64,000 bases of DNA, from contig NC_060258.1 in the NCBI RefSeq assembly GCF_921293095.1, positions 10,182,607 through 10,246,606 on the forward strand. Direction: 5' to 3'. The position numbers and the translations under genes were made by a program. The notes under the pieces are model-generated. The model worked only from the letters and a program-made list of their open reading frames with translations, was not told the DNA's origin and searched no databases. Below, in pieces: positions 17,383-61,431 of the stretch; position 1 is the first letter of the stretch; the number at the start of each line of letters is the position of its first letter. Source of the DNA: Ischnura elegans. Lineage: Eukaryota; Arthropoda; Insecta; Odonata; Coenagrionidae.

Positions 17383-18426
17383 ATGGCAGACGGAAAGAGG
17401 AAAACCTTCAAGAGGAAATCGGAACCAGAGGAAGGGGCCAGAGATTCAACGGATGAATTGCGCAACTACCTATCCAGCAAATTTGCTTCTCTGCGAGACG
17501 AGATGCACAAAGAGATCACTTCAAGGGACGTTCTGCTCCGAAAACTGGAGGAGAGCGTCACTAGATTATCTGAAGATATCGCTCCTCTGAAGGATTATGT
17601 GACGGCAGAGATGGAAGAGGAGGACGACGACGCAAGTTCTTCATCTTCAGACTCGCCTGAAGGTGGTGCTACTCAGGACGGAGACCAGGAAACTGAAGAA
17701 GAGAGAAATAATAGAGCCCAGAATAGATGTGTTGACGTGATGATGAGTCTCACGGAAATACGGATGAATAACGAGGAGAAAACACAGAAAGTCAGAGGTT
17801 TTTACGAGAAAATATACAATGCCTCCCCCTTCACCTCTCTTATGCTGAAGTTCCTGGAGAGAAATCGTGGAGTGAAGGTACTTATCGATTGTGATTCCAC
17901 CAATATCTCCAACGTAGTGGGACGATTGTTTAACCTGGATGGTGAAAAATGTGATGGAGCAAAACTTCATACGTTCGCCGACATTTTTGTAGGCAGGATT
18001 TACTTGGCAGGTATGGGTTTGCAAGAATTGGTTAAGGATAAAATATATCGCGATACGTTTCGCAACACTGAAGTTCTTGGGTCTCAAGTTTCCCTGGCTC
18101 AAAGCTTGGCTCAGATGGTGATGTACTTGATCTTCAAAAATCGAGGCTGTCCTTATGAGTATGACGATTATCTGTTTGAGAAAGTGAACGAGAAAATTGT
18201 GGAGGAAGCATCAACGAAGAAAGACTCAGGGGCGTACATGGACGACTTGATAAGAAATGCCTTGCGTATGAAAACACCTTTAGGGAAAGAAGTATCGTTG
18301 ATTTCGGTCGTCCCGGGAATGCTCGTCAAGTACGGTTCGCAGATAGGAATGAGGACGCTGCAGGAGCAGGTGCCTTTTCTCACGCTCTTCTTCATGCAAC
18401 ATGTGATTCCGAAAATGAGGAGCTAG
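17383..18426 (+). CDS. Paralog 1: coiled-coil protein with degenerate zincin-like C-terminal domain
   Basis: A 347-residue protein encoded in one internal exon (17378-18434). The acceptor GGTGCAG precedes TTGAAATGG, a good start context. Residues 1-20 are basic (KRKTFKRK, possible nuclear signal); 20-75 form a likely coiled coil; 76-110 are acidic and Ser-rich; 115-347 form the conserved domain. In it, MVMYLIFKNRGCPY (245-258) and EVSLISVVPGMLVKY (303-317) match, from memory, the conserved blocks around the HExxH zinc site of uncharacterised arthropod zincin-like proteins. Here the HExxH position reads QSLAQ (240-244), so no zinc binding is expected. The stop (TAG) arises from a 2-bp deletion relative to paralogs 2 and 3 and removes the last three residues. 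The donor GTAAGT follows 8 nt later, so the 3' exon is noncoding. Function unknown; a binding or regulatory role is inference. Confidence 0.85.
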   Translation: MADGKRKTFKRKSEPEEGARDSTDELRNYLSSKFASLRDEMHKEITSRDVLLRKLEESVTRLSEDIAPLKDYVTAEMEEEDDDASSSSSDSPEGGATQDGDQETEEERNNRAQNRCVDVMMSLTEIRMNNEEKTQKVRGFYEKIYNASPFTSLMLKFLERNRGVKVLIDCDSTNISNVVGRLFNLDGEKCDGAKLHTFADIFVGRIYLAGMGLQELVKDKIYRDTFRNTEVLGSQVSLAQSLAQMVMYLIFKNRGCPYEYDDYLFEKVNEKIVEEASTKKDSGAYMDDLIRNALRMKTPLGKEVSLISVVPGMLVKYGSQIGMRTLQEQVPFLTLFFMQHVIPKMRS

Positions 18427-18434
18427 TGAATGAG

Positions 18435-20716
18435 GTAAGTGACTCACTTGGTAAACATTTTATTAAGGAATTTTTATGAAAAGTCCACCTAACTGATACT
18501 CTAATTGCAGTTAACTCTCGATTACAACATATATTGGTCACTCAATGTCATATGAAGCATGGATCCTATAAAGCTATAAAACTGATTTCCATCCAATTAC
18601 ATAATAATTAATAATAACAAAAGACTTTTTATTGTTCTGTATCTAATTCCTTGAAATCAGAAAAAAAATATTTTCTATGATCAAAAATAGTTTATATAGA
18701 TAGGTAGTCTCAATTTTTTAGTAATAAAATGGTAAAACTTATTGTACAGCCCACTGGTTAATTAATAATAACCATGTTTGTCGATGCTTAGCATCATCAT
18801 CAGGTGAAATATGAATAACAAGTGAGTAGCACCACAGAAGCAATGCTGCTTTATATCAATTGTTGAGAGGAGTGTGGGGAGCAGATGAAAGGGGTGGATG
18901 GGGTGAAAGTAGGTGGTCAGAGTAAGAAAGTTTAAATGGCTCAAATGGAATATATTGATGTATTATTGTCAATTTATTTTGCTGAATTCTATTTTGTACG
19001 TTATCCTTTCTCAAATACCCTAAGTTTTTAATATATTTCGCATTCTGAGGATAGATTTTCATGTCTACAATATAAAGACTAAGGTGTGCCTGAGGATCAT
19101 CCCATTTCTCGCGTGATATTTAGTTTCCTCTCCTGTGGCACTAATTGGAACCCAACTGTAAAATAATATTCTAAATTCAAAAGGGGATACTGCGACTTTT
19201 AGGTAAAATGCCTGCTATAATCCACATGTTGCCATCTATTAAGGAAAATTTGATGTATTACCTCTCCTTTTTGTGTTCGTGTACGCTGCAATTGTTTGTG
19301 CGAAAATGAATATTTCTAATAATGCAACCAATGATGATTATCATTGTTATTATAGTGCTATAAGCCTCCAACAAATATTCATAAGAATTAAAATCTGAAG
19401 TTATTCCCCATGGCAAATGGGCCTATTGTTATTTAATGAACTCCCTCTTAGTAAAAAATATGTCCCTCTTCAATTGCAACATTTGTGAGTTTTTTTTAAA
19501 CACTCATTTTATTCTGTCCACAAAAATCTTCATGTGTTGCATTTTTTTCCTTTCTTTAATTTTAATATTTTTGTAACTCACTCACTCCTTGACGTGTCCT
19601 ATATTTGTAAAAGCAAATTACCGGACAAATGAAAATATTAATACAATAATAGTTTTAACATCCTTAATGGTTTTAGAGACTTTAGAAAGCATCAAATTTA
19701 AAAATATCTCATTATATTGGAGAGAAACATAAGTAATCATTGCATAAAAACGCACGTAAAGTACGTACTTACCTAAAATTTACACTTCATAATTTTCTGC
19801 ACTGCTATAAATGGCAGTCTTAAGAAAGAAAGACTTAAATTGCCTTTTGAATTTTGCTTATTCATGGTTCATTCAAGTTTAGGAGATAGGTTTGGCACAG
19901 CGAGGGGGGGTTTGTTGGGGGATAAAACCCCCCCAGAGCTCAGAGAAATTTTTAGTTTAATCCATATGACTTAATTTGATTGATATTACCAAAGGAAATA
20001 TGTAAGGATTGATAAAATATCCCTCATAAAGACATAAAACTCACTTTGAACAATTTATATTGAAATTCCACCGCTTATCCTAATGGGTATTCCATATTCC
20101 CACACACCCCGATATTAGTTGCACCTAAACACTACCCCCGGCCCATAATTCCTAGCTGTGGGAGGCTGATGATTATGAGTTTGAGAACAGATGAAATGTG
20201 GCCCTTTTTTTTTTACTGAAACTGGATTCGAATCTCAACAGGCAGATATCCCTTTTGTCTTTGGTGTCATGAGAGGGGAAATGTCGAAATATATATGAGG
20301 ATTTTCCTTAACAAAGGAGGAACATTGCAGAATGAATAGATAGGGTAGGGTTAGAATACCCAAGGATTTGAAATATGGTCTGCCATGTTCTCTTATTGAG
20401 TTTCCTTCGATTGCTTAGTTACAGCTTCTTTTTGTGGAGAGAAAAATTTGCTAGCCTGGAAATAATTACACCAGACAATAATATTATATTTAAGGAAGGA
20501 CTGAATTTAAGCTGAATACAATAATTTCGAGTATTCCTGCAAGATAACTTGAGTTAGTCTCCTAATCATCCAGTTGCCACTCTAAATATTATTATTAAGG
20601 ACTGACGTCACAATTTGGTAATTAACCATAGCGATAAAATCAGACACTTCTTCTCTTCCCTCCCCCCCTCCATTTTCGCCATCACAACCTCAAGACAGCC
20701 CTCAACGTTGCCAGGG
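18435..20716. other. Intron 2 of copy 1
   Basis: 18435-19890 aligns with 39430-41720 and 61433-63000 with gaps, confirming three related loci. A G-rich repeat (19890-19960, CAGCGAGGGGGGGTTTG) has relatives at 27380, 24030, 46745 and 63010. No coding sequence. Confidence 0.55.
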
Positions 20717-20717
20717 A

Positions 20718-20976
20718 TGCCGACTTCCAAAAAAATATTTGGGGGTCCCAAACCGGGACCCCCTCCTGCCACGGAAAATTTTATAAGTAGTGATTTTTAA
20801 GTTTTTTAAGCATTTTAGATGAGCCATACGATCAACATTAGAACCATGATAACTTATAATCTCGATATCTGGACTCTTCGCGGAAAATCGACAAGCCCGA
20901 CACATTTTTTTCCTCACATCCATAACGAATTTCAGAGGGTGGGTTCGGTCCCCCTCAGGCCCCATGGAGTCGGAAC
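20718..20976. mobile_element. MITE-like repeat with TGCCGACT..AGTCGG ends, copy A
   Basis: Begins TGCCGACTTCC and ends CCATGGAGTCGGAACC, weak inverted repeats, with matched G/C tracts inside. Other copies at 36136-36389 and 63279-63532. The copy at 63279 is in the same intron position, so that insertion predates the copy 1/copy 3 split. Confidence 0.5.
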
Positions 20977-21302
20977 CAATGAATTTTGCTTACGATAGTT
21001 TAGGTCATGAGAGATTGCACTTTTTTTTCTGCGTTTACAATCACAGCATCTGTTGCATTTGTTAAATTTTTAGTTAACGTTCGGCCTATGATTTTTATGG
21101 GATATATATTTCTGCCTAAAATGGCAATTGTTAAGTTACGAATAAACCTGGAAAAAAACCGAGATTTTTATAATTTAATTAGTGGGAGAACCCTGACTGA
21201 TAACAATAATAATATTAATAATAATTACCGCATTTTATTTTATTAATTAATGAGGGCCAAACAATTTTGTTACATATCTGTTTTGTTTCCTTGCTTCAAC
21301 AG

Positions 21303-22520: not shown

Positions 22521-23136
22521 CTATTCCTTCATCAAAAAAAACGAAATCCATTGGTTGCGATTTGAAACCCAGCATTAGTGTGTTCATAAAATACTAAGTA
22601 TTTAGTTTCAGAAATACCGGTTGAGACGAATGGCAACGGTCAATTTTATCCTCATTTGAAAAAGGCAAGATATGCGCCCATACGATGCCACTCTACATGA
22701 CGTCACAGGGACCTAGTTTCTATACGAGTAGATAGGAGTTTTACATCGCCTGAGATTACCAGTGCATGCATGAGGCACAGTGCTTACGGAAACATTTCTT
22801 AATAATCACCTATTAAAACTGCCTATGGTTGGAATGTTTCCTTCGTTTGATAGGGTATTCATAATCCTTATTTAAGCCAAGCACTACCTGTTAGCTGGGT
22901 ACTGTGCTACCTGTAAGCTGCCTGCATTGAAGCGTTGCTCAAAGCCTCGCATCAAGGTCGCCTCACACAGCGACAGCTGGAACAAGAATGATGTCACACG
23001 GGCTTTTCCCAGCATTCTAACTTAGCCATCGAATATTGGCGTGCTTGAAATTTTTCACTTTTCATTCATTCGCGTAAAATAAATATCTAGAAGTATCTTT
23101 CGATTTAGGCAATAAAAAATGGTAGGAAACCACCCT
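22521..23136 (+). mobile_element. AGGGTRGTTTCC MITE, copy A
   Basis: About 620 bp, similar along its length to the copy at 40401-41051, ending GGAAACCACCCT. The left terminal bases are diverged. It carries a TGACGTCA site near 22700. Noncoding. Confidence 0.65.
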
Positions 23137-24307: not shown

Positions 24308-25369
24308 TTTTGGGGGGTGGGGGTAAATCCCCCTCCCCAGAGCTCTGAGATTTTTTTATTGATAGCTCTTTTTACTCACAAAACGCGTTCCGTTGCATAG
24401 TTTTGGTTGGTGAAGGTTACGAAGCATCATGAAAACGGAGTCAAACTTTCGCTGTAAATTTGCCATGGTCAGTAGGCCGACCCTTATTTTTCAGAATTGA
24501 GAAAAGCTGTTTTTCTGGTCTCAAAATGATCAAAATTAGATCTATATTCACGTGTTAAAATTTGGTTACTTTAAAATAACGGCAACCTGTGCCCCAAGGG
24601 CCCTAAGTACTAAGGACCCTCAATTGATTTTTTTGGGGTCAAAGAAGGGCTATTCCTATGTGAAACGTAAAAGTAAAGCCCTTTCGAGCCAATTTTCTGT
24701 TTCTTTTGACCTATTTCTAAGCGTTTAGGAGATATCGTCCGTCGTAATGCAAATCCCCCAGGGCACCACCCCGCACCGCGGCACCGCTGAGGCACGGCCC
24801 GCACCACTTACTACAGAGTTCTCCTCAACCCCCTCCCCTCCCTCGGCAAAGGCTTTACTCCTGGTGACAAGATTTACATGCCAGTGGTGCAGTATTGAAT
24901 AGGTAGTTCCTCTTTTGTCATGATTAATGTTGTTAAAGCCTATAATGTCAATTTTGACCCTTCAACGCCGAACTATGAACTGGGTACCGACCCCTTAAAC
25001 CTTGATTTTTGCCGCCATACGGCCGCGAACCATTAAAGCCCAATTTTTTTTCAAAACTAGCGTTTGAAATTTTCAAATCGACGCTATTTCTCCTTACGCC
25101 CCTGAAAAGTTGTGAAAAATTGGGCATATGCTTCATTAAGAAAGCCATAAAATGGCGCAAATTGCATTGAAAAACATACTTTCTATCTCGAGATATTTAA
25201 AAAAGAGTGGAAATCGAAATTTCGAGCTAGCCAGCCCTGGTGGGCCTCTAGCGGGCTGGAAGTGTGGAAAGGTTAGTCCTATTTGATCCCAAATCCTATG
25301 CCCCAAGTCTGGGAAAAATCCGTGAGGGGGGACTTTTCAATCTCTTAATCTGCTATGCCCTTTCGGTTG
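24308..25369. other. Intergenic DNA upstream of locus copy 2
   Basis: Open frames here (24610-24807, 24948-25160, both minus) are short, start at non-conserved codons and match nothing. No promoter element is clear before 25370. Confidence 0.4.
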
Positions 25370-25431
25370 GTTCCCATAATTATACCATATTTCCCCGGAA
25401 ACTAAGATCACCTTGTCCATCAGCGTCTCAA

Positions 25432-25750
25432 GTGGAGACTTTTGTAAACCCATTTAAATGCGCCGTGGGTGACGATACTTGCGGGAAATTTGCGGTTCCT
25501 CTTTCGTCATATTCGTGCTTCTGACCAGACAGCCAGAGTCCCCTCGAGTGCTGATACGGAACTACACAGTGGCGCGGCATTTAGTCGCTTGGAACACATC
25601 GGGCAACATCGTCATTCGAGAGACGGACGTAGGGAGAGAACGGTGTCAACAGTTTTCATGTGCGGAGTGGAGATAAAGTGCGCATGCGATTGCTTTCATT
25701 CCCTGAGGAGCCAGGATAAGAGGATCGGTATTGTTTTGGCGTGGATTTCG
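25432..25750 (+). other. 5' noncoding exon 1 of locus copy 2 (5' limit uncertain)
   Basis: Closely matches 990-1312 and ends at the same donor (TTTCG then GTGAGT). The stop that ends the long frame in copy 1 is lost here, evidence that the frame is not under coding constraint. Confidence 0.5.
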
Positions 25751-25852
25751 GTGAGTGTTTCATTGTCTCTATTTTTCGTATTCACTTAAAAACATTGCGA
25801 CAGTTCTGTATCACCCCCCTCGTTTCTTGAATGTCTTTCTTTATTAATTCCC

Positions 25853-26238
25853 TAATAGCACCAAAAAAGTAATATATATATTTAATAGGTATCATAGTAT
25901 AGACTGTAAAGATATTATTTCTGTAGAAAATACATTCAATTGTCCTCTATCACGCAGATAATATCTTGAAATTTTACGTATTGTATCACTGTCATAGTAT
26001 GGGTTTTACATATAGATTAAATACGTATAACTAGCCGTAAATCTGTATGTTATTCGTATCGAATGGTTACATCGTGAGGATATTATTTATTGCATATTTT
26101 AAAGGTTCTGGTATACATCTAGGAGCGAGGATCATCAGACCTGTATAAAATATGAATAATATACAGATTTGCAAATATATATACCGAAGCATATCGAAAT
26201 CTTAAAAATATACTGGTATAATCCTTTTCGTGCTACTA
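25853..26238. mobile_element. TAGTAGCACC MITE at the same site as in copy 1
   Basis: Ends TAATAGCACCA and TCGTGCTACTA; interior aligned with 1417-1797. A shared insertion between copies 1 and 2. Confidence 0.55.
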
Positions 26239-26876
26239 GTGTTACACTATCCCTGCCGGTTATCAGCGCGTGATGGATTGTATTGCGTGTGATGAATGAA
26301 TTATTGTTTAGTGAAAATTGTGTAGTGAGTTGATAATGTGTGTTGAATTAATTTCAAAATGAACTGTATTCAGATCCCTTTAGTGTTGTCCTTCAAAAGT
26401 GTGAAATCGTAAATGATAGTGCAACTTTGAAGGGAAAGTGTTCGCCTGTAAACTTAGGGCGGAAATCTATGAGAAGTTGAAAGAGTTCAGTAATAATATT
26501 GTGGCTGACGCGATATCCCTGTTAACTTGCCCAATCGTAAACATTGCGACGGCAATTCTGTGTTAATAACAGGCGAGGAAGGTGGCGTGGGTTATTACTT
26601 AGACTCCTAATTAAACCCACTGTAAGTGAACGATACCAAGAAAATGTAGCAATTCCATAAAATTGCTCAAATTTCAATATTCTTGGGAGATAACGGGCGA
26701 CCTCGTGACAACAATTTTCTTATCAAATGTTGGAGAATTGTGGAAGGAAGGGGATTATTTCACTGGATATAGGACGAGAGGTGATAGCTGGCTGTAGGAC
26801 GTAATCGTGGTGATTATTAATAATTTTTCCCCGGGAAAAGATGTTTGAGTCATGAAATCGCGAAGCTTACCATTGA
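26239..26876. other. Intron 1 of copy 2 matching 1798-2330 and 3226-3324
   Basis: The match to copy 1 continues to about 26775 and then jumps to the sequence equivalent to 3226, so the 900 bp at 2330-3225 (with its MITE) was added in copy 1 or lost in copy 2. Confidence 0.5.
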
Positions 26877-27181: not shown

Positions 27182-27490
27182 AAGTAAAAAAAAGTTTACA
27201 TTGCGCATTGAAAATTTTTATTAAAAAGTATTTAAGAGTTGTGAACACGTACTTAGACAATAGTTTGCATTGACCCTCAGAGGATTATCAAATTTTCTGT
27301 GAATGTGGGCGTAGTTTATCCACCCAAGCACCCCCATTCCGACCTCGCTTACTAAGATCCACGTTCGAAAACAGTGATGCCACCCAGAGGCGCAATGGGG
27401 GGGGAGGGTTTGGGGGATACCCCCCCCCCCCCAAAAAGCTCAGAGAAATATTTAGATTTAATCAATTCTACTTAATTAAATATATATTAC
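27182..27490. other. G-rich dispersed repeat and flank
   Basis: Contains a run of Gs, then a run of Cs, then AAAGCTCAGAGAAATATTTAG (27380-27460), like 19899-19960. Confidence 0.45.
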
Positions 27491-27940
27491 TAATAGAATA
27501 GCGATAGGACAAATAAAATATCCCTCAGAAAGCCGTAAACCTCACCATTTTGAACTATTTATGTTTTAATTCCGCAATTTACTAATCTCGCACCCACGGA
27601 CTTAGATGTTAAAAGTTTCAGTTTTAAAGTTTCATCCATTTTACTCAATTGGATTGATATTACTAATAGAATAGCGATAGGATAAATAAAATATCCCTCA
27701 GAAAGCCGTAAACCTCACCATTTTGAACTATTTATGTTTTAATTCCGCAATTTACTAATCTCGCACCCACGGACTTAGATGTTAAAAGTTTCAGTTTTAA
27801 AGTTTCATCCATTTTACTCAATTGGATTGATATTACTAATAGAATAGCGATAGGATAAATAAAATATCCCTCGGAAAGCCGTAAAACTCACCATTTTCTT
27901 CCATTTCTCTTAGAATTCCGTAATTTATTAATGTCGCACC
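27491..27940. repeat. 173-bp tandem repeat, about 2.4 copies
   Basis: The anchor TAATAGAATAGCGATAGGA occurs at 27491, 27664 and 27837, exactly 173 bp apart; adjacent units are almost identical. The single-copy form of the unit resembles 19960-20080 in intron 2 of copy 1, so the array grew from a piece of that G-rich repeat. Confidence 0.8.
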
Positions 27941-30843: not shown

Positions 30844-30970
30844 CTCTCGTGTCAAGAAACGTCCACACGTGTGTTTAAATCTTTATTTGGGAAAAGGTTA
30901 AGTTCCCTCTCGTGTCAAGAAACGTCCACACGTGTGTTTAAATCTTTATTTGGGAAAAGGTTAAGTTCCC
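30844..30970. repeat. Perfect 63-bp tandem duplication
   Basis: The block starting CTCTCGTGTCAAGAAACG occurs at 30844 and 30907 with no mismatches seen, so the duplication is recent. Confidence 0.85.
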
Positions 30971-31400: not shown

Positions 31401-31721
31401 TAATTTCCTGATTAAACAAGTTAAATATTATGATCAATTTCCCACCAATTTATTTTGATGCGTACTCGTAAAGCAATGGCACTTCCAACTCTAATAATGA
31501 ACTTTCTTATAGCACTCCTAGACATAGCTGTCCATGAGGATAATGCAAACTGGTTCCCTGCGACTGTATACCCTCTATAGGAGCTGTACGGAAATGTATT
31601 TATTGAATTTTGAATTGTGAAATAATATCTCTTCATTGCTTTTTTTTAAGATGTACTGGTGAATAATATTGCATAAAATGAAGAATTTAAGTTACAATAT
31701 CGTTAGGCTCTATATACCACC

Positions 31722-33235
31722 AATTTATTTTGCTGGGTACTCGTAATGAAATGGCACTTCCAACTCCAACCATGAACTTTCTTACACAACTCCAAGAGAT
31801 ATTTCTTTCCGAAACATTTGTTTACTGTTTCCTGCACCCCTATGCTTTGAGAGTCCCAAACTCCCCTCCACTTGCATCCCTCCCCTCCCACTAGCATTTC
31901 CCACCCCACCCTCTGTTTCCTTGAGCTGGAGTGCGTCGTAAGAAAACACGGCCCACGAAACGCAGTCGCAGGCGAGGCACAAGTCCCTTCACCCACCCCT
32001 TACCCCTCCGCACCCCTCTTCCTCCTTCAGCCCCCACTTCGTCTACCAGGCTGAACCCATCCCACTCTCAATCACCCCGCCCTAGAAATGGGAGAAATTA
32101 CGCCGCAATCCATTAATCGTATCCAATGATCATCGCTTCCCAAATCATCGGTCAAGTTTAAAAACCGTTTTACACGGGGCACGGAATTGCGCAGGTTAGA
32201 ACTGCATTAATTTCTAAAACGGCGTGGAACTGCGCGAATGCATGAACGAAATTAAAACGGACTATTTTGCCGTCTCGCATCCACGCATTCTCGCATACGT
32301 TCTAGCAATTCACCGCTTTCACACGACGCGTTTTTTATTTCGCCTTCGCACGTACGTCAGACTGCGCAATTCCGTGTACCGATGATTCTACCGATTATGT
32401 GCAGGCAACGAATTGATGCGATTGCACCGATTCTATAATAATCGCGAGGATATCGTTCCAATTTTCAATACGAATTTTAATCATCACTATCAATTCAAAT
32501 GTACTGCGGTATAATTGCAATATAAAAATAAGCCACCGGTACTTGATTCTCACGCGAATGGAGATATATTAAAGCAACAGCTATTGCATACGATTTTTAA
32601 AAGTTGAGATGGAGCTTAAGTAATCGATTCAACGATTAAATCGACGCCTCATAAACGATTACATAATCAAAACAATCGCAGTACAATGATCGATTATTAT
32701 CGAAAATCTATTCTTTTTCAAATCACTACCCCACCCCCTTTGAACGTTTTTCGGCTGCGGAGGACACAAACAAGGATTGAAAATTATGATATTCCTTACA
32801 TGATATAAACAAGACTTTAGTTGATCACGGGAATACTAGTACTTCATAGATACAATTAGGTCATGTTGTTGATTCGACCAATATCTCTTTTAAAAATCTA
32901 ATGGAACACGCCACTTCGCTGAAAAATGTTTGCTCTCCAATCGGCATTTGCACTGCTGCACTTGCTTTTTTGGATTTTCGTCTGATGTAAAACTTCTTAT
33001 CCTTCAAACGCTATTTCCAGTACACGTATTCACGAGAGCAATGTGCAATGTTTTGCATAAAACAACCGCTTTCGCCGGCGCTGTAATTGGGTGTGAGATG
33101 CATCAAAAAGGCGAAAAATAGTCCATCATTTGAAATGTTCCTGTATAATAAATATATTTTTTAAATAATTGAGGCAGTGTGCTAAGTGTGAACAATGTTG
33201 CGTTAATCGTCAGCGGCACGCCCAACTCGAGGCGT
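31722..33235. repeat. Segment duplicated from 4845-6480 (intron 1 of copy 2)
   Basis: Aligned with copy 1 throughout: C-rich repeat, MITE from 32165 with its right end deleted, then AT-rich DNA up to CGTCAGCGGCACGCCCAA. A further partial copy of the C-rich repeat start lies just upstream at 31441-31540. Confidence 0.7.
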
Positions 33236-37462: not shown

Positions 37463-37858
37463 GTCTGTTTCAGCAAGGAGCCCAAATACGGAAGCTGGCC
37501 TGGTAGCGGAAACGGGCAGTTGAGATGGACGAAGTCGTTCCTTGCAAAGATCCGATCTCTATGATTCAAGTCAACAGTGTTGCTTGCCTCGTACCTTATT
37601 CCTAGTCTATATATTCGTCGAAATCCAATGGCCTAAAAAAATACTCGTCATGCGTCCAGACAGTCGATTAATCCACCAAAATAATAATTCTGGTCCCCTT
37701 AACTGAATAACATTTAGTTAATTTAGATCATTATTTAAGTTTTAAATAATAATAATGATGATTGGTGCATTTTAAAGTACATATGTTGACTATTAACTAC
37801 GTATTGTCCTTCAAAACTACATGTATTTCTACGTTTGATACGCGATTGCTATTTGCAG

Positions 37859-38151
37859 TATAAATGCCGCGGGATGCCCACTCGTGGAAGTAAATGTAGC
37901 GTGTACTCTGGAGCGAAAAACCCCGCGCGATATATTTCCGTGTTCACCTCTGAGTTATCGACTCGACGGCACGATGTTAACGAGTGAGAAAAGCAAACAG
38001 GAGCATTTTAAAAATACAACGTCACTGAGGGAGAAACTCCCCTGCCTGCCGCTTGTTTTTGACCCATGGTTTCAGATGACTGACTCACATTGAAAACCAA
38101 GGGCACTCAGTTCCCCTTGGACTTGCGACGGGGGGAAGATGAGAAGTTTGT
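37859..38151 (+). promoter_or_regulatory. TATA-box promoter and candidate alternative 5' exon, locus copy 2
   Basis: GCAGTATAAAT at 37855-37865 and the following 290 bp match 16070-16363, ending at donor TTTGT then GTAAGAG. It lies only 200 bp from the coding-exon acceptor at 38352, so the intron would be very short or the promoter could read straight through. See the copy 1 entry for why the open frame is rejected as coding. Confidence 0.4.
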
Positions 38152-38357
38152 GTAAGAGACGCACCCTCGTTTTCCGATTACATTTCTGGGGGCCTATGCC
38201 TGAGTCCGTTCGAAATATCTCGCATGCGAATGCACTCGCACGATCAATCTCGCACTACGAGCGTTCTATGCGGAATTCGGTATGCCCTCTGAAACAGCAC
38301 CTCTAGATATGTAAACCTCATATGAATCCACTCATTGCATTTCTAGGCGCAGTTAAA

Positions 38358-39428
38358 ATGGCTAGCACTGGCGACACAGTCCAAAACCTTCCTGTTGAAG
38401 AGGCTGTAGCACGAGGTGGGGTGACTGAGATTGAGAAAGGGGCCAGAGATTCAACGGATGAATTGCGCCACTACCAATCCAGCGATTTCGCTTCTTTGCG
38501 AGATGAGATTCACAAAGAGATCACTTCAAGGGACGTTCTGCTCCGAAAACTGGAGGAGAGCGTCACCAGATTATCTGAAGATATCGCTCCTGTGAAAGAT
38601 TACGTGATGGCAGAGATGGAAGAGGAGGATGACGACGCAAGTTCTTCATCTTCAGACACACCTGAAGATGGCGCTCCTCAGGACGGAGACCAGGAAACTG
38701 AAGAAGAGAGAAATATTAGAGCTTTAAATAGATGTGTGGACGTGATGATGAGTCTCACGGAAATACGTGAGAATAACGAAGAGAAAACAAAGAAAGTCAG
38801 AGGTTTTTACGAGAAAATATACAAAGCATCCCCCTTGACCTCTCTTATGCTGAAGTTCCTGGAGAGAAATGGTGGAGTGAAAGTAATAATCGATTGTGAT
38901 TCCAAGGATATCTCCAACTTAGTGAGGGGATTGGCTAACCTGGATGGTGAAAAATGTGCTGGAACAACATTACATAAGTTTGCCGACTTTTTTGAATGCA
39001 AGGTTTACTTGGGAGGTGAGGCTGGAAAATATCAAGTATGGGAAGGGTTGAAATGGGTGGACAAATATCATGACCCTGAAGCATCCCTGTCTCAGAGCTT
39101 GGCACAGATGGTGATGTACTTAATTTTCAAAAACCGAGGTTTTCCTTACAAGTGTGACGATGATCAGTGTGAGAAACTGTACGAGAAAATTGCGCAGGAA
39201 GCATTACAGAAGATGACCTCAGGGGCGTACATGGACTACTTGATTAACGATGCCTTGAGTATGAAAACACCTTTAGGGAGAGAAGTATCGTTGATTTCGG
39301 TCGTCCCGGGAATGCTCGTCAAGCACGGTTCGCAGGGAGGAATGAGGACATTGCAGGAGCAGGTACCTTTCCTCACGTACTTCTTCATGCAACACGTGAT
39401 TCCGAAAATGAGGAGCATAATCAATTGA
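38358..39428 (+). CDS. Paralog 2: coiled-coil protein with degenerate zincin-like C-terminal domain
   Basis: The coding exon runs 38353-39429 after acceptor TTCTAGGCGCAG. I start at the ATG at 38358 (TTAAAATGG), equivalent to the other copies, rather than at an in-frame ATG 36 nt upstream that lies in the intron. Product 356 residues: N terminus MASTGDTVQNLPVEEA, coiled coil about 30-85, acidic Ser-rich linker 86-120, conserved domain 125-356. The HExxH position reads QSLAQ (246-250), followed by MVMYLIFKNRGFPY. Variable segment 221-242. It ends IIN and TGA, one nucleotide before the donor GTAAGT. The full frame is intact, with no stop, and in-frame indels distinguish it from the others, which suggests the protein is kept by selection. 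Confidence 0.85.
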   Translation: MASTGDTVQNLPVEEAVARGGVTEIEKGARDSTDELRHYQSSDFASLRDEIHKEITSRDVLLRKLEESVTRLSEDIAPVKDYVMAEMEEEDDDASSSSSDTPEDGAPQDGDQETEEERNIRALNRCVDVMMSLTEIRENNEEKTKKVRGFYEKIYKASPLTSLMLKFLERNGGVKVIIDCDSKDISNLVRGLANLDGEKCAGTTLHKFADFFECKVYLGGEAGKYQVWEGLKWVDKYHDPEASLSQSLAQMVMYLIFKNRGFPYKCDDDQCEKLYEKIAQEALQKMTSGAYMDYLINDALSMKTPLGREVSLISVVPGMLVKHGSQGGMRTLQEQVPFLTYFFMQHVIPKMRSIIN

Positions 39429-39581
39429 GGTAAGTGACTCACATGGTAAACATTTTATCGGAATAAAGGAATCTTCATGAAAAATCCACAAAACAGATAT
39501 ACTAATTGCAGTCAACTCTTGATTGCAACAGATGCTGATCAGGCAATGTCATATGAAGCATGGATCCCATAAAGCTATAAA

Positions 39582-39827
39582 TCTGTAGAAGTTTCAACAG
39601 TTAATTGGGACAACTGCGGAATCCAACAGTAACTTCTGAATCGAACAGTGAGTGCTGAATCCAACAGTAACTTCTGAATTCATCAATAATTTTTGGATTT
39701 ATTAGATACTGTCAGAGTTTACAGTTATGGTTAGTTTTAACAGTTACTGTTACTTTTTAAATTTACTTTTAGTTTTAACAGTGGTCCCAATTAACAGTTG
39801 AAATTTCAACAGTTTTTTCGCTAAGGG
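39582..39827. mobile_element. Foldback CAACAGT element inserted in intron 2 of copy 2
   Basis: Flanked by a 17-bp direct repeat, TCCCATAAAGCTATAAA, at 39565-39581 and 39828-39844. Copies 1 (18568 onward) and 3 (61566 onward) have a single version of this sequence, so they are empty sites. The right end AACAGTTTTTTCGCTAAGGG matches the family; the left end lacks the terminal CCCTTAG and appears truncated. Confidence 0.7.
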
Positions 39828-40400: not shown

Positions 40401-41051
40401 AGGGTAGTTTCCTTCATCAAAGAAAACGAAAGGCATTGATTGCGATTCGTTACCCACCATTAGTGTATTCATAATATACAAATTATTTGGTTTTAGAAAT
40501 ACCGGTTTAGACGAATGGCAAGGGTCAAATTTTATCCTCATTTGAAAAAGGCCAGATTGGCGCCCATGCGATTCCACTCCGCGTGATGTCACAGGGACCT
40601 AGTTTCTACACGAGAGGATAGGAGTTATACATCGTCTGAGGTTATCAATGCATGCATGAGCCACAGAGCTCAGGGAAACATGTCTTAATAATCACCTATT
40701 AAAACTGGCTAAGGTCGGAAAGTTTTCTTCGTTTGATAAGGTATTGATAAACCTTTTTTAAACCAAGCGCTACCATTCAGCAAGGTACTCAGCTATCCGC
40801 TAGCATCCTGCGTCCTATCAGCGCTCAGAGCCTCGATCAAGGTCACCTCACAAGGAGAGAGAGGGAACCAGAAATGCGTCGCACGGACTTTCCTACTTAC
40901 GCGTCGCGTTTTTGCGCGCTTGAATTTTTTCATTTTCATTTAATCGCGAAAAATAGATATCGTCATTTAAAAATCTAAAAGCGCAAAATACGTACTCCAG
41001 GAGTAATAATCTTTCGATTTGGGCAATAGAAAAATAATAGGAAACCACCCT
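40401..41051 (+). mobile_element. AGGGTRGTTTCC MITE, copy B, with defined AT target duplication
   Basis: Starts AGGGTAGTTTCC and ends GGAAACCACCCT, flanked by AT on both sides. Copy 3 at 62231-62240 has the uninterrupted site CACTAATTCATGGG, so insertion added 651 bp plus a 2-bp AT duplication. An AT duplication is known for the ISL2EU group; that assignment is inference. Noncoding. Confidence 0.8.
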
Positions 41052-44861: not shown

Positions 44862-45440
44862 TACGATATCTATTTTTCATGATTAAACTAAAAGTGAAAT
44901 ATTTCAAGCACCCGAAAATGCGACTGCTAAGGAGGAATGATGGGAAAAGCCCGTGTGACGTATTTCTGTTTCCAGCTGTCGGCGTGTGAGGTGACATTGG
45001 GTCGAGGCTTGAGCGCTGATACGACGCAGGTTGCTAGAAGGTAGCAGAGTACCCTGCTAGCAGGTAGCGCTTGGCTTAAATAAGGATTATTATTCCCCTA
45101 TCAAACGAAGGAAACTTTCTAACCTTAAGCGATTTTAATAGGTGATTAATGAGAGATGTTTCCCTGACTCTGTACGTCATGATATGCATTGCTAATCTCA
45201 GAGATTTGTAAGACTCCTATCTACTTGTATAGAAACTAGGTCCCTGTGACGTCACGTTGAGTGGCATCACATGGGCGCCAATCTGGCCTTTTTCAAATGA
45301 GGTTAAAATTGACCATTATTGCCATTCGTCTAAACCTGTATTTCTAAAACCAGGTAATTTGTATATTATGAATGTACTAATGGTGGGTAAGGAATTGCAA
45401 TAAATGCATTTCGTTTTCTTTTGATGAAGGAAACTACCCT
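44862..45440 (-). mobile_element. AGGGTRGTTTCC MITE, copy C (minus orientation)
   Basis: Ends GGAAACTACCCT at 45440; the other terminus is missing. Carries TGTGACGTCACG at about 45247. Inserted beyond the 3' exon of copy 2. Confidence 0.65.
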
Positions 45441-46675: not shown

Positions 46676-47262
46676 AGGGTGGTTTTTTTACTATTATTTT
46701 TTTAAGTGCCTAAATGGAAGGATTATTACTCGTGGAGCAGTGGAACAGCGAGGGGGGTTTGCTGTGCCCATGTCCTGGAGTGAATGTACTTTACACTTTT
46801 AGATTTTTAAATGATGACATCTATTTTTTTGCGATTAATTGAAAAGTGAAAATTTTCAAGCTCACAAAAACGCAATGGCTAAGTATGAATGCTGGGAAAA
46901 GCCTGCGTGACGTCCCGCTGCCACCACGAGAGGCCACCATGGTGCGAGACTATGAGCGCCACTACGATGCAGGTTGCTGGCAGGTAGCAGAGTACCCCGC
47001 TAGTAGGCAGCGCTTGGCTTAAACAAGGATTATAAATACCTTATCAAATGAAGGAGACTCTCTGACTTAGGTATTTTTAATGTGTAATTATTAAGACATG
47101 TTTCCCTAAGCTCTGTGCCTCATGCGTGCATTGGTAATCTCTGTTTTGATTATTTTGTTAATTAATGATGTAAAACTCCTATCTACTCGTATAGAAACTA
47201 GGTCCTTGTGACGTCACGTGGAATGGCATCGCATAGCCGCCAATCTGGCCTATTTCAACTCA
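46676..47262 (-). mobile_element. AGGGTRGTTTCC MITE, copy D (minus orientation, truncated)
   Basis: Starts AGGGTGGTTT at 46676, interrupted near 46740-46780 by a piece of G-rich repeat, and fades out at about 47262. Carries TGTGACGTCACG at about 47207. Confidence 0.6.
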
Positions 47263-49474
47263 TGTAAAAATTTTTCCCTTGAAACAGAGCTGAAAATCCA
47301 CTGAATGTGAGAAAACTGCCTTAAAACAACCTTGTAACTGCACTGCCTTGTCCTCAACAAGAAAAAGAGCACTCAACTGAAACTCTGATGCCATTCTCCC
47401 TTGCAAGTCCATTGCTTTTGAACTGCTTCTCCCTGGCTGCATGTGTGCCCCACTGATACTGAACTGGACAATAGGCTCAGGCCAGGCCGAATTTATGGCT
47501 CCACTGCATCTCTCTTGCCGAATGTCTTTACTGCCCTGCCACAGACCTGCTGCATCATTTGGGTATCCCCTCTCCCTCATGAATTAGGACTGCTTCTCCC
47601 TTGCTGCATGTGTGCTACCCATCGTAAGTTTTGCCAACATACGGAACCCATCTACCAGACATATATGCGACCCCTCTTTTCAGCGGCAATGAATTTTTTT
47701 TATTTAGCTTTTTAGGCAACACGTATATCTTTTCCCGTGCGTCAAGCTGTCGGTTGCCATTATTTCTCTCTAGTTGCTAGGAGCAAAAGACGAGTGGTGA
47801 GCGTGGGTTTTGGCATGAAAAGATTGATGACATAAATATTTTCCCGGTACTTCGACAGTTGTTAACGGCAAGAATTATTTGAAATTAAGGTGAAGGGGAG
47901 AACGAGGTCGGTGGTGGTGACTGCACTCAAAATAGGAGGTAAGCGTTTTAACTTCTCTGATGTCATGTTTATTCCTTCCAAGATTAGCCACGAGAACGTT
48001 GACATTGAATTCGTGTTTTAATCCAGGCAGGTTTAAGGATTTCGAGCTCCTTTTTCGGGGGTCATGCAGCCAATAACTAATTCTTCTTTCAATGCCTTGG
48101 CGACTGCCGTCCACTTTTCCTGCCTCATGGATACCCCGGACGAGGAGGAGAATACACCGACCCAAGGTGCATATAATAGGCACGCACGCACCTTAACATC
48201 ATCCGTTAGCCATCCTGCGGAGGACTAACGGGCTCGGTGAGCTCGAGCGGGCTTAAGTTATTAGTTACTGCTAATAGTTTTAGAAGCTTGCGTGGTTTTT
48301 GTTTGGAGTTCACACATAGCCTAAGTAACGAGTCATCGCTTTGTTTTTCATTGATCTATGATGCAAAGCGCATGCTTACTCAGTGATAAATGAAGTTTTG
48401 ATTTCTATAATTTGAATGCTTCACATTATTGTCCCATATAACTAAAAAGCCAAGTAAAGGAGAGTTTTTTTTTAAGTGCAATTTTGCTAATTTGATTTTG
48501 AGTTAAGTCGTTTATGTGACTCTTATCAGTCATGTTTCTTCTCTATTGCAGGAGCATCTAACTTCCATGACTTCTTTCATTTAGAATATTTTTGTTTGTG
48601 CTTTAAACAGTTATTAATTTATTGAGGTATTTTCATATTCTAATAAATTGTGATCGTTGCAGTTATAACTATTGTTGATCGCAATCACCTGACCACCCTT
48701 TATTTTTTATCATGAATGCAAAATTGTGGGAGAAACCTGTTATGTGATCATCCACTGTTGGCTGGGTTGTGCAAGTTGTTAATTTACTGTGTTCTATATG
48801 ATTTGACATGGGAATTTTAATGGATTGGGTAGGGGAATTGTATTCAGCCAAACAATAAGGGAGTTTCAGCCTGGAATACAAAGGAGAGAAATTGATTAAG
48901 TACTGTCTTTGGGCCTCTGCACATTTTTTTCCAGCGACTGTGCTGTGACTGGTACATGCCCAAGGAGGTTTCTTCGGAGACTTCTTGCCAGGCCTTTTTC
49001 AGGGCTGCCTTAATCCTTACTTGCAAAAAAATGTCTGCTGGCGTGACTTGCGGACTACAGGTGAGGCAGCATACCAATCTGGTGTTTGGCCATGAACCAC
49101 GGTGTGGATTTGTAGCATGCTGTTGCAATGAGCCCTTCAATAGGTGGAAGAAGGGACTTCATAGTCTCAACCTCGCCCGAATAAAGGCATTTTATCATTA
49201 TTATAAAGGCTTTTAACTCCCTCAAAACTTGTGAGTAGGGCAGAACAGAGTCGCTATAAGCCTCACAACTTATTTAGTTTCCTAAAGATATTTAGCATAA
49301 AACTTAAACTTTGCTCGATTGTTGATTCCATTTTTTCCTTGACAAGGTCTGTCAAGGAGGGGGCTTATAATAACTTACGTCCTTCCATATCTTGGAGAGC
49401 ACTCAGATTGGTCTTCCGACAATGATTAGTGTCCGTTCCCCCAACTCCAAGTAGTTTGATCCCATTCCAAAAGT
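47263..49474. other. Intergenic DNA, no gene assigned
   Basis: Frames of 70-106 codons occur (47260-47580 minus, 47875-48183 minus, 48844-49140 minus). A 30-bp phrase, ACTGCTTCTCCCT.GCTGCATG, is repeated at 47418 and 47589. None of the frames shows a domain I recognise. Confidence 0.35.
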
Positions 49475-50131
49475 AGGGTGTTTCCTTCATCAAAGAAAAC
49501 GAAAGGTATTGATTGCATTTCGTTACCCACCATTAGTGTATTCATAATATACAAATTATTTGGTTTCAGAAATACGGGTTAAGATGAATGGCAATGGTCC
49601 ATTTTTATCCTCATTTGAAAAAGGCCAGATTGGTGCCCATGCGATTCCACTCCACGTGACGTCACAGGGACCTAGATTCTATACGAGTAGATAGTAGTTA
49701 TACATTGTCTGAGATTACCAATGCATGCATGAGGCGCAGAGCTCAGGGAAACATGTCTTAATAATCACTTATTAAAACTGGCTAATGTCGGAGAGTTTTC
49801 TTCGTTTGATAAGGTATTAATAATCCTTATTTATGGCAAGCGCTACCAGCCAGCAGGGTACTCAGCTACCCGCTAGCAGCCTGCATTGTGTCAGCGCTCA
49901 AGCCTGGCCTCAAGGTCACCTCACACGCCGAAAGCTGAAACCAGAAATACGTCACACGGTGAGATTTCCCGGCATTCTTACTTAGCCGTTGTGTTTTAGC
50001 GAGCTTGAAAATTTTCACTTTTCATTTAATCGTGAAAAATAGATATCGCCATTTAAAAATCTAAATGCGTGAAATACGTACTCCAGGAGTTATAATCTTT
50101 TGATTTAGACAATAAAAATATATTAGGAGGG
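49475..50131 (+). mobile_element. AGGGTRGTTTCC MITE, copy E
   Basis: Starts AGGGTGTTTCCTTCATC; the right end is degraded. Carries GTGACGTCACAGGG at about 49657. Full-length relative of 40401-41051. Confidence 0.65.
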
Positions 50132-52146: not shown

Positions 52147-52229
52147 TGCAATATAACTGCAATATGCTCCAAAACCTCTCACCAAACACCGTTGAATACA
52201 TTTGGTTCTTCTAATTCACCGTTGAGAAA

Positions 52230-52558
52230 TGCTTCTTGTGATACATGTCGTGTATGGAACCATGGATACGTGCATCTTGCGGTGACGATGAGAGGAAGCT
52301 AGCGAAGTGGACCATGACAGATGCTGCAGCTCAGCATGCGATACAGTGGACCAGACAGTGAAGTTACACCTTTTAACGTGTGAAACCGCAAAAGACATGT
52401 ATGATACACTCCTTCGTATTTATAAGAAGATTACTGACCACAAGATGTGCTTGTTGTTACAACAATTTTATAACTATAAATATGATAATAGTAAGGACAC
52501 TCATACTAATATTAGTCAACTTCAAAATGTTTTTCCGTTTAAAGATATATTGAAATAA
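52230..52558 (+). pseudogene. Copia gag (UBN2-type) fragment
   Basis: KWTMTDAAAQHAI in one frame is followed in the next frame by DQTVKLHLLTCETAKDMYD and LLRIYKK, the standard order of Copia gag (W..DA.A...I, then C.TA.EMW..L...Y). The change of frame at about 52340 marks a frameshift. The frame ends at TAA about 50 codons after the conserved core. Confidence 0.65.
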
Positions 52559-59560: not shown

Positions 59561-59625
59561 CACAAAAACCATTCACGCAAACGTATGTTAACTTGTACAT
59601 GTTAATGTACCATGTAACAAGGCCT
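59390..59625. mobile_element. AAGGCCT MITE, complete copy
   Basis: TGCCTGATTACATGATACAT on the left pairs with GTACCATGTAACAAGGCCTT on the right. About 80% similar to 12165-12401. Confidence 0.7.
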
Positions 59626-59631
59626 TAATAT

Positions 59632-59800
59632 CCCAGACAGCACAAAATATCTGGAATGTCTTTAGCTAATATCTGTTAAATATCTCGTAATAACCTTTGT
59701 TGAAATTTTTTAAATATCTGAATGTCTGCTTTTCTGGTATCTACATGATATCTTGAGAATATATTTTCTAGACATTCATATTAAAATTTGACCCGCTTGG
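59632..59800. mobile_element. Solo transposon end CCCAGACAGCACAAAATATC
   Basis: Similar to the TIR of the 9 kb element (CCCAGTCAGCACAAAAGATA), and likewise followed by a repeated subterminal motif, here AATATCTG/ATATCT, about six times. No matching right end is found before the coding exon. Confidence 0.45.
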
Positions 59801-60364
59801 CAATTGCAGGATAAGTGACTTGAATATAATATGTTCCGGTATAGCTAGAGTTTAGTATTCAACTGAATTGTTCTCAAGTATTGGCTCTGCTTCTTTGGTA
59901 TCACTGACATGGCAATGACAACATCACCTCGCTGCAACATGTCGGGTGTGACAGCCGTGAATGGTCTCCCTGACTACTTGAAGCACCAACAAACTGCCTT
60001 CTGACGCTCTCGTCCTCTGAACCCAGGGAACTGCAATCTTGTTGGCCATAGATGCTCCATAACCTTTGCACAAACGTCACCGAATAGTCTACACAATTTC
60101 TTTCCCAGCGTTGAGAAATACAGTGAAGGCACACTGCTTGTAATGTATCTCCCTGACTGATGCCATATTGAAATGGTCATACAGCTTAGCTATCAGTGGG
60201 AAAAACTAGAAATTTTGCGTGCAGATCCATGGAACTTCAGCTAACGCATAGGTATCTAACGTTTCACAACAATACCGTTGCTGTCGGATGAGAAAACAAT
60301 AATGGTGCATTACTTCATGGGCAACCCTCATACTCAATGCATTTCTTTTTATTTCTAGGTGTAG
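59801..60364. other. Intron before the coding exon of copy 3
   Basis: 59901-60180 is GC-richer and open on the minus strand in two overlapping frames; no family recognised. From 60270 it aligns with the pre-acceptor region of copy 1. Confidence 0.4.
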
Positions 60365-60369
60365 TTGAA

Positions 60370-61431
60370 ATGGAAGGTGTTGGTGACACAGTGGAAAAAC
60401 TTCCTGTTGAAGAGGCTGCAGCACTAGATGGGTTGGCCATGCCAGAGGAAGGGATCAGAGACATAATTACTGAAATACGCCACCAGCAGTCCAGCGGTTT
60501 CGCTTCTTTGCGAGATGAGATCACTTCAAGGGATATTCTGCTCCGAAAACTGGAGGAGAGCGCCACTAGATTATCTGAGGATATCGCTCCTGTGAAGGAT
60601 TATGTGACGGCAAAGATGCAAGAAGAGGCGCACAGTGCAATGTCTCAATCTTCAGACTCGCCTGAAGGAGGCGCTACTCAGGACGGAGACCAGGAAACTG
60701 AAGAAGAGAGAAATAATAGAGCCCAAAATAGATGTGTAGACGTGATGATGAGTCTCACAGAAATACGTGAGAATAACGAGGAGAAAACACAGAAAGTCAG
60801 AGGTTTTTACGAGAGAATATACAAAGCATCCCCCTTCACCTCTCTTATGCTGAAGTTTCTGGAGAGAAATCGTGGATTGAAAGTACTAATCGATTGTGAT
60901 TCCTCCAATATCTCTAACTTAGTGGGACGATTGGTTAACCTGGATGGTGTAAAACAGGATGGAAGGTTTTTGAATGTGTTTGTTGACTTTTTTCAATGCA
61001 AGGTTTACTTGGGAAAAGTTGCTGGGGAAGTTACAGTATATGAAGGTTACAAAATTTTTATCAAAAGTTTTGGCTCTGAAGTTCCCCTGGCTCGGAGCTT
61101 GGCACAGATGGTGATGTACTTGATCTTCAAAAACCGAGGGTGTCCTTACGAGTGTGATGATGAAATGCATGAGAAACTGTACGAGAAAATCGTGCAGGAA
61201 GCATTACAGAAGAAGAATACCACAGGAGTGTGCATGGACGACTTGATAAAAAATGCCTTAAGTATGCAATCACCTTTATCTAGAGAAGTATCATTGATTT
61301 CGGTCGTCCCGGCAATGCTCGTCAAGTACAGTTCGCAGGGAGGAATGTCGCAACTGCAGGAGCAGATGCCTTTTCTCACGTTCTTCTTCATGCAACATGT
61401 GATTCCGAAAATGAAGAGCATAGTCAATTAA
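60370..61431 (+). CDS. Paralog 3: coiled-coil protein with degenerate zincin-like C-terminal domain
   Basis: Coding exon 60365-61432 after acceptor GGTGTAG (an earlier TTTCTAG is also possible). I use the ATG at 60370 (TTGAAATGG), in line with the other copies. Product 353 residues: MEGVGDTVEKLPVEEAAA, coiled coil about 30-85 shortened by an in-frame 12-bp deletion (four residues after LRDE), acidic linker with fewer Ser and Asp than paralogs 1 and 2, conserved domain 121-353. The HExxH position reads RSLAQ (242-246), then MVMYLIFKNRGCPY; EVSLISVVPAMLVKY at 306-320. Variable segment 217-238. It ends IVN and TAA one nucleotide before donor GTAAGT. Intact frame. Closest in its N terminus to paralog 2. 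Confidence 0.85.
   Translation: MEGVGDTVEKLPVEEAAALDGLAMPEEGIRDIITEIRHQQSSGFASLRDEITSRDILLRKLEESATRLSEDIAPVKDYVTAKMQEEAHSAMSQSSDSPEGGATQDGDQETEEERNNRAQNRCVDVMMSLTEIRENNEEKTQKVRGFYERIYKASPFTSLMLKFLERNRGLKVLIDCDSSNISNLVGRLVNLDGVKQDGRFLNVFVDFFQCKVYLGKVAGEVTVYEGYKIFIKSFGSEVPLARSLAQMVMYLIFKNRGCPYECDDEMHEKLYEKIVQEALQKKNTTGVCMDDLIKNALSMQSPLSREVSLISVVPAMLVKYSSQGGMSQLQEQMPFLTFFFMQHVIPKMKSIVN

What the first reader, a model, noticed from the sequence alone, without database searches (positions are those of the whole stretch)
17383..61431. Tandem family of three apparent pseudo-zincins: HExxH replaced by QSLAQ/RSLAQ
The three paralogs share a C-terminal domain whose blocks (FYEKIY, VLIDCDS, VYLG, MVMYLIFKNRGCPY, EVSLISVVPGMLVKY, PFLT.FFMQHVIPKM) fit the layout I remember for a zincin-like domain of uncharacterised arthropod proteins, where HELTHYAM precedes N..CKPY. 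At that point the copies read QSLAQMVM (18100-18123), QSLAQMVM (39093 onward) and RSLAQMVM (61093 onward). All three lost both His and the Glu while keeping the surrounding helix, and the frames stay open. A dead protease fold joined to a coiled coil and an acidic linker in a repeated locus suggests recruitment as a binding or decoy protein, possibly in defence. The sequence match is seen; the fold and role are inferred.
Basis: partly seen in the sequence, partly recalled or inferred. Interest (0 to 1): 0.85.

Follow-up and report, generated by a model that had tools for sequence, protein, structure and literature searches.

The report
Three tandem dead-protease-like genes
Three neighbouring gene copies encode a domain related to bacterial proteins that carry a zinc-protease-like motif, but the presumed active-site residues have been replaced, so the proteins have probably become binding proteins rather than enzymes.

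Summary
Three open coding exons (c1 17383-18426, c2 38358-39428, c3 60370-61431) read QSLAQ, QSLAQ, RSLAQ where stated. Pfam, NCBIfam, PHROGs and PDB give no credible match; both AlphaFold models are unusable.

Bacterial relatives settle the homology. A gammaproteobacterial frame (L032) matches c1 at E 4e-10, with HELTH exactly on QSLAQ. A profile of three such relatives finds the copies at E 4e-12 to 1e-14; the best of 3254 decoys is 0.31. All five relatives found keep HExxH. A downstream Glu, invariant in five of five and perhaps the third zinc ligand, is Ser in all copies.

The copies do not look like debris: neutral simulation predicts 10.5 stops where none occur; the core is constrained (dN/dS 0.27-0.49), while three patches chosen for variability are near 1.

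Best reading: inactivated relatives of an HExxH domain that some bacteria link to ankyrin repeats, kept as a binding module. Fold, zinc loss, splicing, partner, defence role, horizontal transfer and arthropod origin are inferred.

The parts
17378..18434 (+). Copy 1: probable single coding exon, ATG 17383, stop 18424-18426 (347 aa), between an acceptor-like AG (ends 17377) and a GTAAGT donor-like site (18435)
38353..39429 (+). Copy 2: probable single coding exon, likely ATG 38358, stop 39426-39428 (356 aa; the ORF list starts at 38322)
60365..61432 (+). Copy 3: probable single coding exon, likely ATG 60370, stop 61429-61431 (353 aa; the ORF list starts at 60337)
18100..18114 (+). QSLAQ at the aligned HExxH position, copy 1
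39093..39107 (+). QSLAQ at the aligned HExxH position, copy 2
61093..61107 (+). RSLAQ at the aligned HExxH position, copy 3
18295..18297 (+). Ser305 where five of five bacterial relatives have Glu (ELI), the candidate third zinc ligand, copy 1
39288..39290 (+). Ser at the same candidate ligand position, copy 2
61291..61293 (+). Ser at the same candidate ligand position, copy 3
17485..17601 (+). Coiled-coil-like stretch of copy 1 (c2 38490-38606, c3 60502-60606)
   Evidence: best heptad a/d hydrophobic count reached by 3, 2 and 0 of 5000 shuffles in c1, c2, c3; coordinates
17593..17721 (+). Acidic/serine linker of copy 1 (16, 17 and 11 D+E of 43 residues in c1, c2, c3)
17944..18096 (+). Variable patch (c1 residues 188-238) directly before the motif helix; 42 of 53 alignment columns vary among the copies
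   Evidence: 13 of 21 and 29 of 32 columns

Best explanation
The locus is a tandem family of three eukaryotic genes, probably spliced. Each encodes a coiled coil, an acidic linker and a C-terminal domain homologous to an HExxH (predicted zinc metallopeptidase) domain found in a few small-genome proteobacteria, where it can follow ankyrin repeats. In all three copies both histidines, the glutamate and the downstream candidate third ligand are replaced, so the domain should hold no catalytic zinc and cleave nothing. The coil probably oligomerises the protein. The conserved scaffold presents fast-changing loops around the former active-site region to a partner. The domain would work by binding or sequestering, for example as a decoy, adaptor or competitor for the target of an active relative. 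Shown: sequence homology, residue replacement, retained frames, constraint on the core, rapid change in patches. Inferred: splicing, zincin fold, lack of zinc, activity of the bacterial relatives, oligomerisation, binding role, host association of the bacteria, and horizontal transfer.
For: Homology: L032 against c1, BLASTP E 4e-10; the three copies against L032, hhalign probability 94.5, P 8e-8. Profile of L036+L037+L032 against c1, c2, c3: 4.3e-12, 2.6e-13, 1.3e-14, best decoy 0.31 among 3000 shuffles and 254 other window ORFs; with L002 and L023 added to the profile 4.1e-6, 4.4e-8, 6.7e-8, best decoy 0.026. A window-only profile against 1553 ORFs of 42 loci puts L032 first (7.8e-9) and L037 second (1.3e-4). 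Site change: of 10 columns identical in all 5 bacterial rows, H, E, H and E are replaced in all 3 copies, whereas V, N, P, L and I are kept in all 3 and one Tyr is lost (one-sided Fisher 0.024 for H/E/H/E against the other six, chosen after the fact; 0.083 if only H/E/H is named in advance). Selection: neutral simulation gave a mean of 10.5 stops, zero stops in 0 of 5000 runs, and more amino-acid change than observed in 5000 of 5000 runs; core dN/dS 0.27-0.49, patches 1.01-1.12. Architecture of L036: ankyrin repeats by Pfam (2.8e-31) before the HExxH domain. Precedents: pseudo-ADAMs, with ADAM23 reading the same QSLAQ (PMC11266112, passages); ankyrin-linked Tox-REase-8 reported from endosymbionts and arthropods (PMC3482391, passages).
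Against: No structural confirmation: mean pLDDT 36.6 and 38.9; Foldseek on the second model gave 14 matches, best E 2.8, none a zincin by its description. No Pfam match above a curated cutoff for the HExxH domain of the bacterial relatives either (the nearest is Scm3 to L032 at 0.0032, below cutoff) and no PDB profile match of note, so even their protease nature rests on the motif. Against a window-only profile L036 reaches only 0.065, behind a spurious Rhizobium place at 0.03, and the alphaproteobacterial L023 and L002 only 5.8 and 9.2. Overall dN/dS is 0.51-0.74 and flanking DNA is about as similar between copies as the exon, or more so. The variable patches were defined after seeing the variation, and dN does not clearly exceed dS there. 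No expression data, no partner, no arthropod relatives, no known direction of transfer.
Confidence: 0.6

Rival explanations
1. Same homology, but the copies are relaxed relics of a duplicated gene on the way to pseudogenes, with no function left.
For: Overall dN/dS is 0.51-0.74, and parts of the flank are as similar as or more similar between copies than the coding exon: c1/c3 coding 81.2%, 3' flank 87.1%; other flank stretches 81.5-88.3%.
Against: No stop or net frameshift in three copies although 10.5 stops are expected; amino-acid change below every one of 5000 neutral runs; core dN/dS 0.27-0.49; splice-like sites kept in all three.
Confidence: 0.15
2. The domain shares ancestry with the bacterial HExxH proteins, but HExxH there is not a zinc site; the fold is a non-zincin domain and nothing catalytic was lost.
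For: No profile or structural link to any zincin; the four PDB profile hits are designed helical proteins or filaments at E 0.011 or worse.
Against: H, E and H are invariant in five diverged relatives and are replaced together with a downstream Glu and one Tyr, while V, N, P, L and I are kept. That is the pattern expected of an active site.
Confidence: 0.13
3. The three genes form an animal defence or anti-symbiont system: decoys that capture the target or inhibitor of active HExxH effectors of intracellular bacteria.
For: Relatives with an apparently intact motif sit in bacteria, L036 clearly and L037 weakly ankyrin-linked; tandem expansion; patches with dN/dS near 1.
Against: No infection, expression or interaction data; dN does not clearly exceed dS in the patches; the same signs fit ordinary adaptor proteins.
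Confidence: 0.2

Closest known systems
Pseudo-ADAMs (ADAM11, ADAM22, ADAM23; M12), reviewed in PMC11266112 (passages read)
   Same: HExxH replaced inside a kept scaffold; ADAM23 has the identical QSLAQ and ADAM22 QSLAH; the dead domain of ADAM22 binds its partner LGI1 through its surface.
   Different: ADAMs are metzincins with other domains such as a disintegrin domain; no ADAM appears among the PDB profile matches of the copies or of the wider family; the identical five letters look convergent.
CLCA family and other zincin-like families with substituted HExxH (PMC3650047, passages read)
   Same: Conserved non-random substitution of HExxH (His to Arg is enriched there, as in c3); members in both animals and bacteria; patchy spread suggesting horizontal transfer.
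   Different: Different family; for CLCA that paper supports eukaryote-to-prokaryote transfer, whereas here the direction is unknown.
Ankyrin-linked effector domains reported from endosymbionts and arthropods, e.g. Tox-REase-8 (PMC3482391, passages read)
   Same: Ankyrin-associated bacterial domain that also occurs in animal genomes.
   Different: Tox-REase-8 is a restriction-endonuclease fold; the window copies have a coiled coil and acidic linker in place of ankyrin repeats and have lost the presumed active site.
Bacterial relatives L036 (G1050), L037 (G1051), L032 (G506), L002 and L023 (G001)
   Same: Colinear domain blocks around the motif helix, N..xP[YF], the ELI block and the C-terminal helix.
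   Different: HExxH and Glu are present; L036 carries ankyrin repeats and L037 a weak ankyrin match below cutoff; L032 holds only the C-terminal half of the domain.

Membership tests
The HExxH domain family of L036/L037/L032 (unnamed; no Pfam match above cutoff) | Significant colinear sequence similarity over the C-terminal domain | tested here: met
   (L032 and L037 directly; L036 only 0.065 against the window-only profile)
The HExxH domain family of L036/L037/L032 (unnamed; no Pfam match above cutoff) | HExxH plus downstream invariant Glu | tested here: not met
   H/E/H/E are Q or R/S/Q/S in three of three copies
Zincin superfamily, active peptidase | HExxH zinc motif | tested here: not met
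   QSLAQ, QSLAQ, RSLAQ
Zincin superfamily, by fold | Mixed beta sheet with active-site helix | tested here: inconclusive
   AlphaFold mean pLDDT 36.6 and 38.9; Foldseek best E 2.8
Zincin superfamily, by fold | Profile match to a curated zincin family | tested here: not met
   No Pfam, NCBIfam or PHROG match of note for the copies; none above cutoff in Pfam for the HExxH domain of five bacterial members
Pseudo-metallopeptidase (functional class) | Homologue lacking catalytic residues, retained under selection | tested here: met
   Residues; no stops, core dN/dS 0.27-0.49; loss of activity itself is inferred
   No arthropod sequence collection; the paper search for the motif words held 46 papers, 20 listed, none of the listed ones relevant

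The most novel reading that the evidence does not exclude
An animal took up an ankyrin-linked zinc-protease effector domain from intracellular bacteria, disarmed its whole active site, joined it to a coiled coil, and multiplied it into a small family whose loops next to the old site evolve fast: a domesticated 'dead effector' used against, or in control of, the same bacteria or the same target.
Probability: 0.18. Interest if true: 0.82.

Novelty: new variant of a known kind. Interest (0 to 1): 0.52.

Why it matters
It points to a domain, without a match above cutoff in the Pfam copy searched, that occurs with an apparently intact active-site motif in bacteria and without one in a eukaryote. 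Three copies let selection be read directly. If the dead version binds what the active version cuts, it gives a handle on the unknown target of the bacterial protein. It also adds what looks like a convergent QSLAQ replacement to the one known in ADAM23, which suggests that this substitution suits the helix.

Tried and rejected
Family and structure searches: Pfam, NCBIfam, PHROGs and PDB gave only weak matches, below cutoff where one exists (for example MCM_lid to c1 at 0.014 and an RpoD model to c3 at 0.0078). Two AlphaFold jobs and one Foldseek search gave no usable structure.

Spurious or unfollowed hits: a Rhizobium plasmid place (E 0.3) runs through a stop and beyond the annotated frame. 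A satellite phage hit to L036 (E 0.05) was not followed. Of 20 genome stretches with the HEL.H pattern, 13 showed an in-frame match to the HEL form of the motif; by eye only L002 looked like the family. Weak profile hits L025-L028, L031 and L034 show no HExxH in the frames scanned; L029, L033 and L041 were not examined further.

Null scans: eight viral-contig scans gave no relative. Plasmid and phage tblastn gave none apart from the two weak hits above. The first of two genome-contig scans gave none. Genome searches: the L002 protein found only its own genome in 385 Alphaproteobacteria; profile A4 gave 0 of 6 genomes, 2 of 286 genomes of another phylum, both weak, and, besides its own genome, five weak hits (E 0.0097-0.92) in 385 Alphaproteobacteria; profile A6 gave 2 of 369 Gammaproteobacteria, both known members, and 1 of 162 Alphaproteobacteria.

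Considered: artefact of the ORF list (rejected by selection tests), mobile-element ORF (three copies only, within duplicated blocks; not tested further), chance resemblance (rejected by decoys).
Full report
WHAT IS THERE. The window holds three long open frames on the + strand: c1 17383-18426, c2 38322-39428 and c3 60337-61431. No other copy was seen in the window. All three frames share the same surroundings: a pyrimidine tract and AG ending five bases before an in-frame ATG (AG ends 17377, 38352, 60364), and GTAAGT 8, 1 and 1 bases after the stop (18435, 39430, 61433). I therefore read each as one coding exon of a spliced gene, with c2 and c3 starting at 38358 and 60370; no transcript was seen. 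DNA similarity continues beyond the exon, for example 17283-19093 with 60272-62089 and 38313-39584 with 60323-61587: tandem segmental duplication with repeats scattered in between. I take the window as eukaryotic from its low gene density, splice-like sites and a copia-type gag fragment.

ANATOMY. Residues 35-73 of c1 have heptad spacing (best a/d hydrophobic count reached by 3 of 5000 shuffles; 2 for c2, 0 for c3), overlapping at its end with a 43-residue acidic linker (16, 17 and 11 D+E). The rest is the domain of interest.

HOMOLOGY. Curated libraries and the PDB gave nothing credible, nor did viral, phage or plasmid collections. One, L002 in an alphaproteobacterial MAG, reads HELTHYVMTAVFKNSANPF. 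The same genome encodes a second member, L023 (E 9.4e-10 with the L002 protein). A profile of these two (A4), run over 369 Gammaproteobacteria, gave two hits at E 0.02 or better, both at chance level on their own. Read for HExxH, one of them, L032, proved close to the window: GNLAHELTHLVIQILYNNACKPY...AELIVRVSHILAKYGRTEGMSLLQTQ; the other shows none. Its family and order in the collection (10 genomes) gave L036 and L037 (3 of 10 genomes with the L032 protein; 4 of 10 with profile A6, the fourth a 65-residue frame). Over 369 Gammaproteobacteria A6 found 2 genomes, both of this order. L036 has ankyrin repeats before the domain (Pfam Ank_2 2.8e-31) and L037 a weak ankyrin match below the cutoff (8.4e-5). 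The four genomes concerned are listed at 1.2-1.9 Mb, which suggests host association; that is inference.

STRENGTH OF THE LINK. c1 against L032: BLASTP E 4e-10, 27% over 117 columns; the three copies against L032: hhalign probability 94.5, P 8e-8. A profile of L036, L037 and L032 finds c3, c2 and c1 at 1.3e-14, 2.6e-13 and 4.3e-12; the best of 3000 shuffles and 254 other window ORFs scores 0.31. With L002 and L023 added the values are 6.7e-8, 4.4e-8 and 4.1e-6, best decoy 0.026. Reversed test, a window-only profile over 1553 ORFs from 42 loci: L032 first at 7.8e-9, L037 second at 1.3e-4, then the spurious Rhizobium frame at 0.03 (itself picked by a window search), L036 only 0.065, L023 5.8, L002 9.2. 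L002 and L023 are thus tied to the window through intermediates: profile A6, which does not contain them, finds L002's frame at 7.5e-5 in a search of 162 Alphaproteobacteria, but not L023's at 0.001. Direct comparisons are weak: the copies against L002 alone, hhalign P 0.13; against the L002/L023 pair, P 0.013, with 0 of 200 column shuffles reaching its score. L002 had been picked by a motif, so those figures are optimistic.

ACTIVE SITE. In the joint alignment HExxH of all five bacterial rows falls on xSLAQ of all three copies. Ten columns are identical in the five bacterial rows: H, E, H, V, N, P, Y, E, L, I. In the window V, N, P, L and I are unchanged in three of three copies, while H, E, H and the second E are changed in three of three (Q/Q/R, S, Q, S), and Y is K/K/Q. 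The second E, in E-L-I, is a natural candidate for the third zinc ligand; that role is inferred. The change is concentrated on the presumed chemistry and largely spares the scaffold (one-sided Fisher 0.024 for H/E/H/E against the other six, framed after seeing the columns; 0.083 if only the motif's H/E/H is named).

NOT DEBRIS. With the observed number and kind of changes, a neutral star-tree simulation gave a mean of 10.5 stop codons over the three copies, and 0 of 5000 runs had none; amino-acid change was lower in the real genes than in any of 5000 runs. A first run of this simulation had a stop in its start sequence and is superseded. dN/dS for core segments is 0.27-0.49; for three variable patches (c1 residues 14-24, 188-238, 259-299) it is 1.01-1.12; over the whole exon 0.51-0.74. 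The patches were chosen for their variability, which inflates dN, and dN does not clearly exceed dS. Flanking DNA is about as similar between copies as the exon or more so, so overall constraint is modest.

MECHANISM. The most likely reading is a pseudo-metallopeptidase: a multimer built by the coil that uses the scaffold, and perhaps the loops next to the old site, to bind a partner. Known dead metallopeptidases do this; ADAM22 binds LGI1 through the surface of its dead domain, and mutation of these residues in ADAM22 and ADAM23 disturbs the interaction (PMC11266112, passages). ADAM23 carries the very same QSLAQ; no ADAM appears among the PDB profile matches, so this looks like convergence. 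His-to-Arg, as in c3, is a replacement seen more often than expected in substituted HExxH sites (PMC3650047, passages). A domain shared by ankyrin-bearing bacterial proteins and a eukaryote recalls Tox-REase-8, reported from endosymbionts and arthropods (PMC3482391, passages). Horizontal transfer is likely but its direction is open. A recent survey of arthropod HGT chimeras (PMC13389597, passages) contains no occurrence of 'metallop' or 'protease' in its main text; its supplements were not read.

WHAT DID NOT WORK. Two structure predictions have mean pLDDT 36.6 and 38.9. The second shows strands before the motif helix, but at that confidence this means little, and Foldseek found nothing. The zincin fold therefore rests on the motif and the Glu. 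No arthropod sequence could be searched. Six paper searches, judged from their listings (capped) and the passages named above, showed no description of this domain; the open-access library is not the whole literature.

VERDICT. Observation confirmed. Interpretation partly supported and strengthened on homology and site change, open on fold and role. A new variant of a known kind, interest 0.52.

Noticed in passing
window 7252-9203: Inverted repeat with 800-bp arms 93% alike (7252-8045 and 8407-9203), containing 138-140-bp tandem subrepeats; a short frame at 7101-7379 looks THAP-like by eye (recalled motif, no Pfam hit). Possibly a foldback DNA transposon.
   Followed up: partly
window 22524-23087, 40409-40961, 44865-45432 (-), 46825-47272 (-), 49482-50047: An element of about 450-650 bp present in five copies in both orientations, 75-86% alike.
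   Followed up: no
window 927-2325 with 25365-26775; 4836-6464 with 31720-33225: Two further duplicated blocks (86% and 91-93%) that do not contain the gene.
   Followed up: no
window 52292-52555: Copia-type gag fragment (PF14223, 5.1e-7).
   Followed up: no
window 30844-30970 and 27484-27940: An exact head-to-tail 63-bp duplication and a 173-bp tandem array (95% matches), both apparently recent.
   Followed up: no
window 15985-16401 with 37769-38189: A 420-bp block upstream of copies 1 and 2, 91% alike, more than the coding exons; a possible promoter, 5' exon or repeat. One frame in it had no Pfam match.
   Followed up: partly
L032 1474-2025; L041: In one small gammaproteobacterial order the domain appears as a C-terminal half (L032) and a 65-residue frame (L041), while L036 and L037 hold the whole domain: patchy, perhaps decaying in some genomes.
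   Followed up: partly
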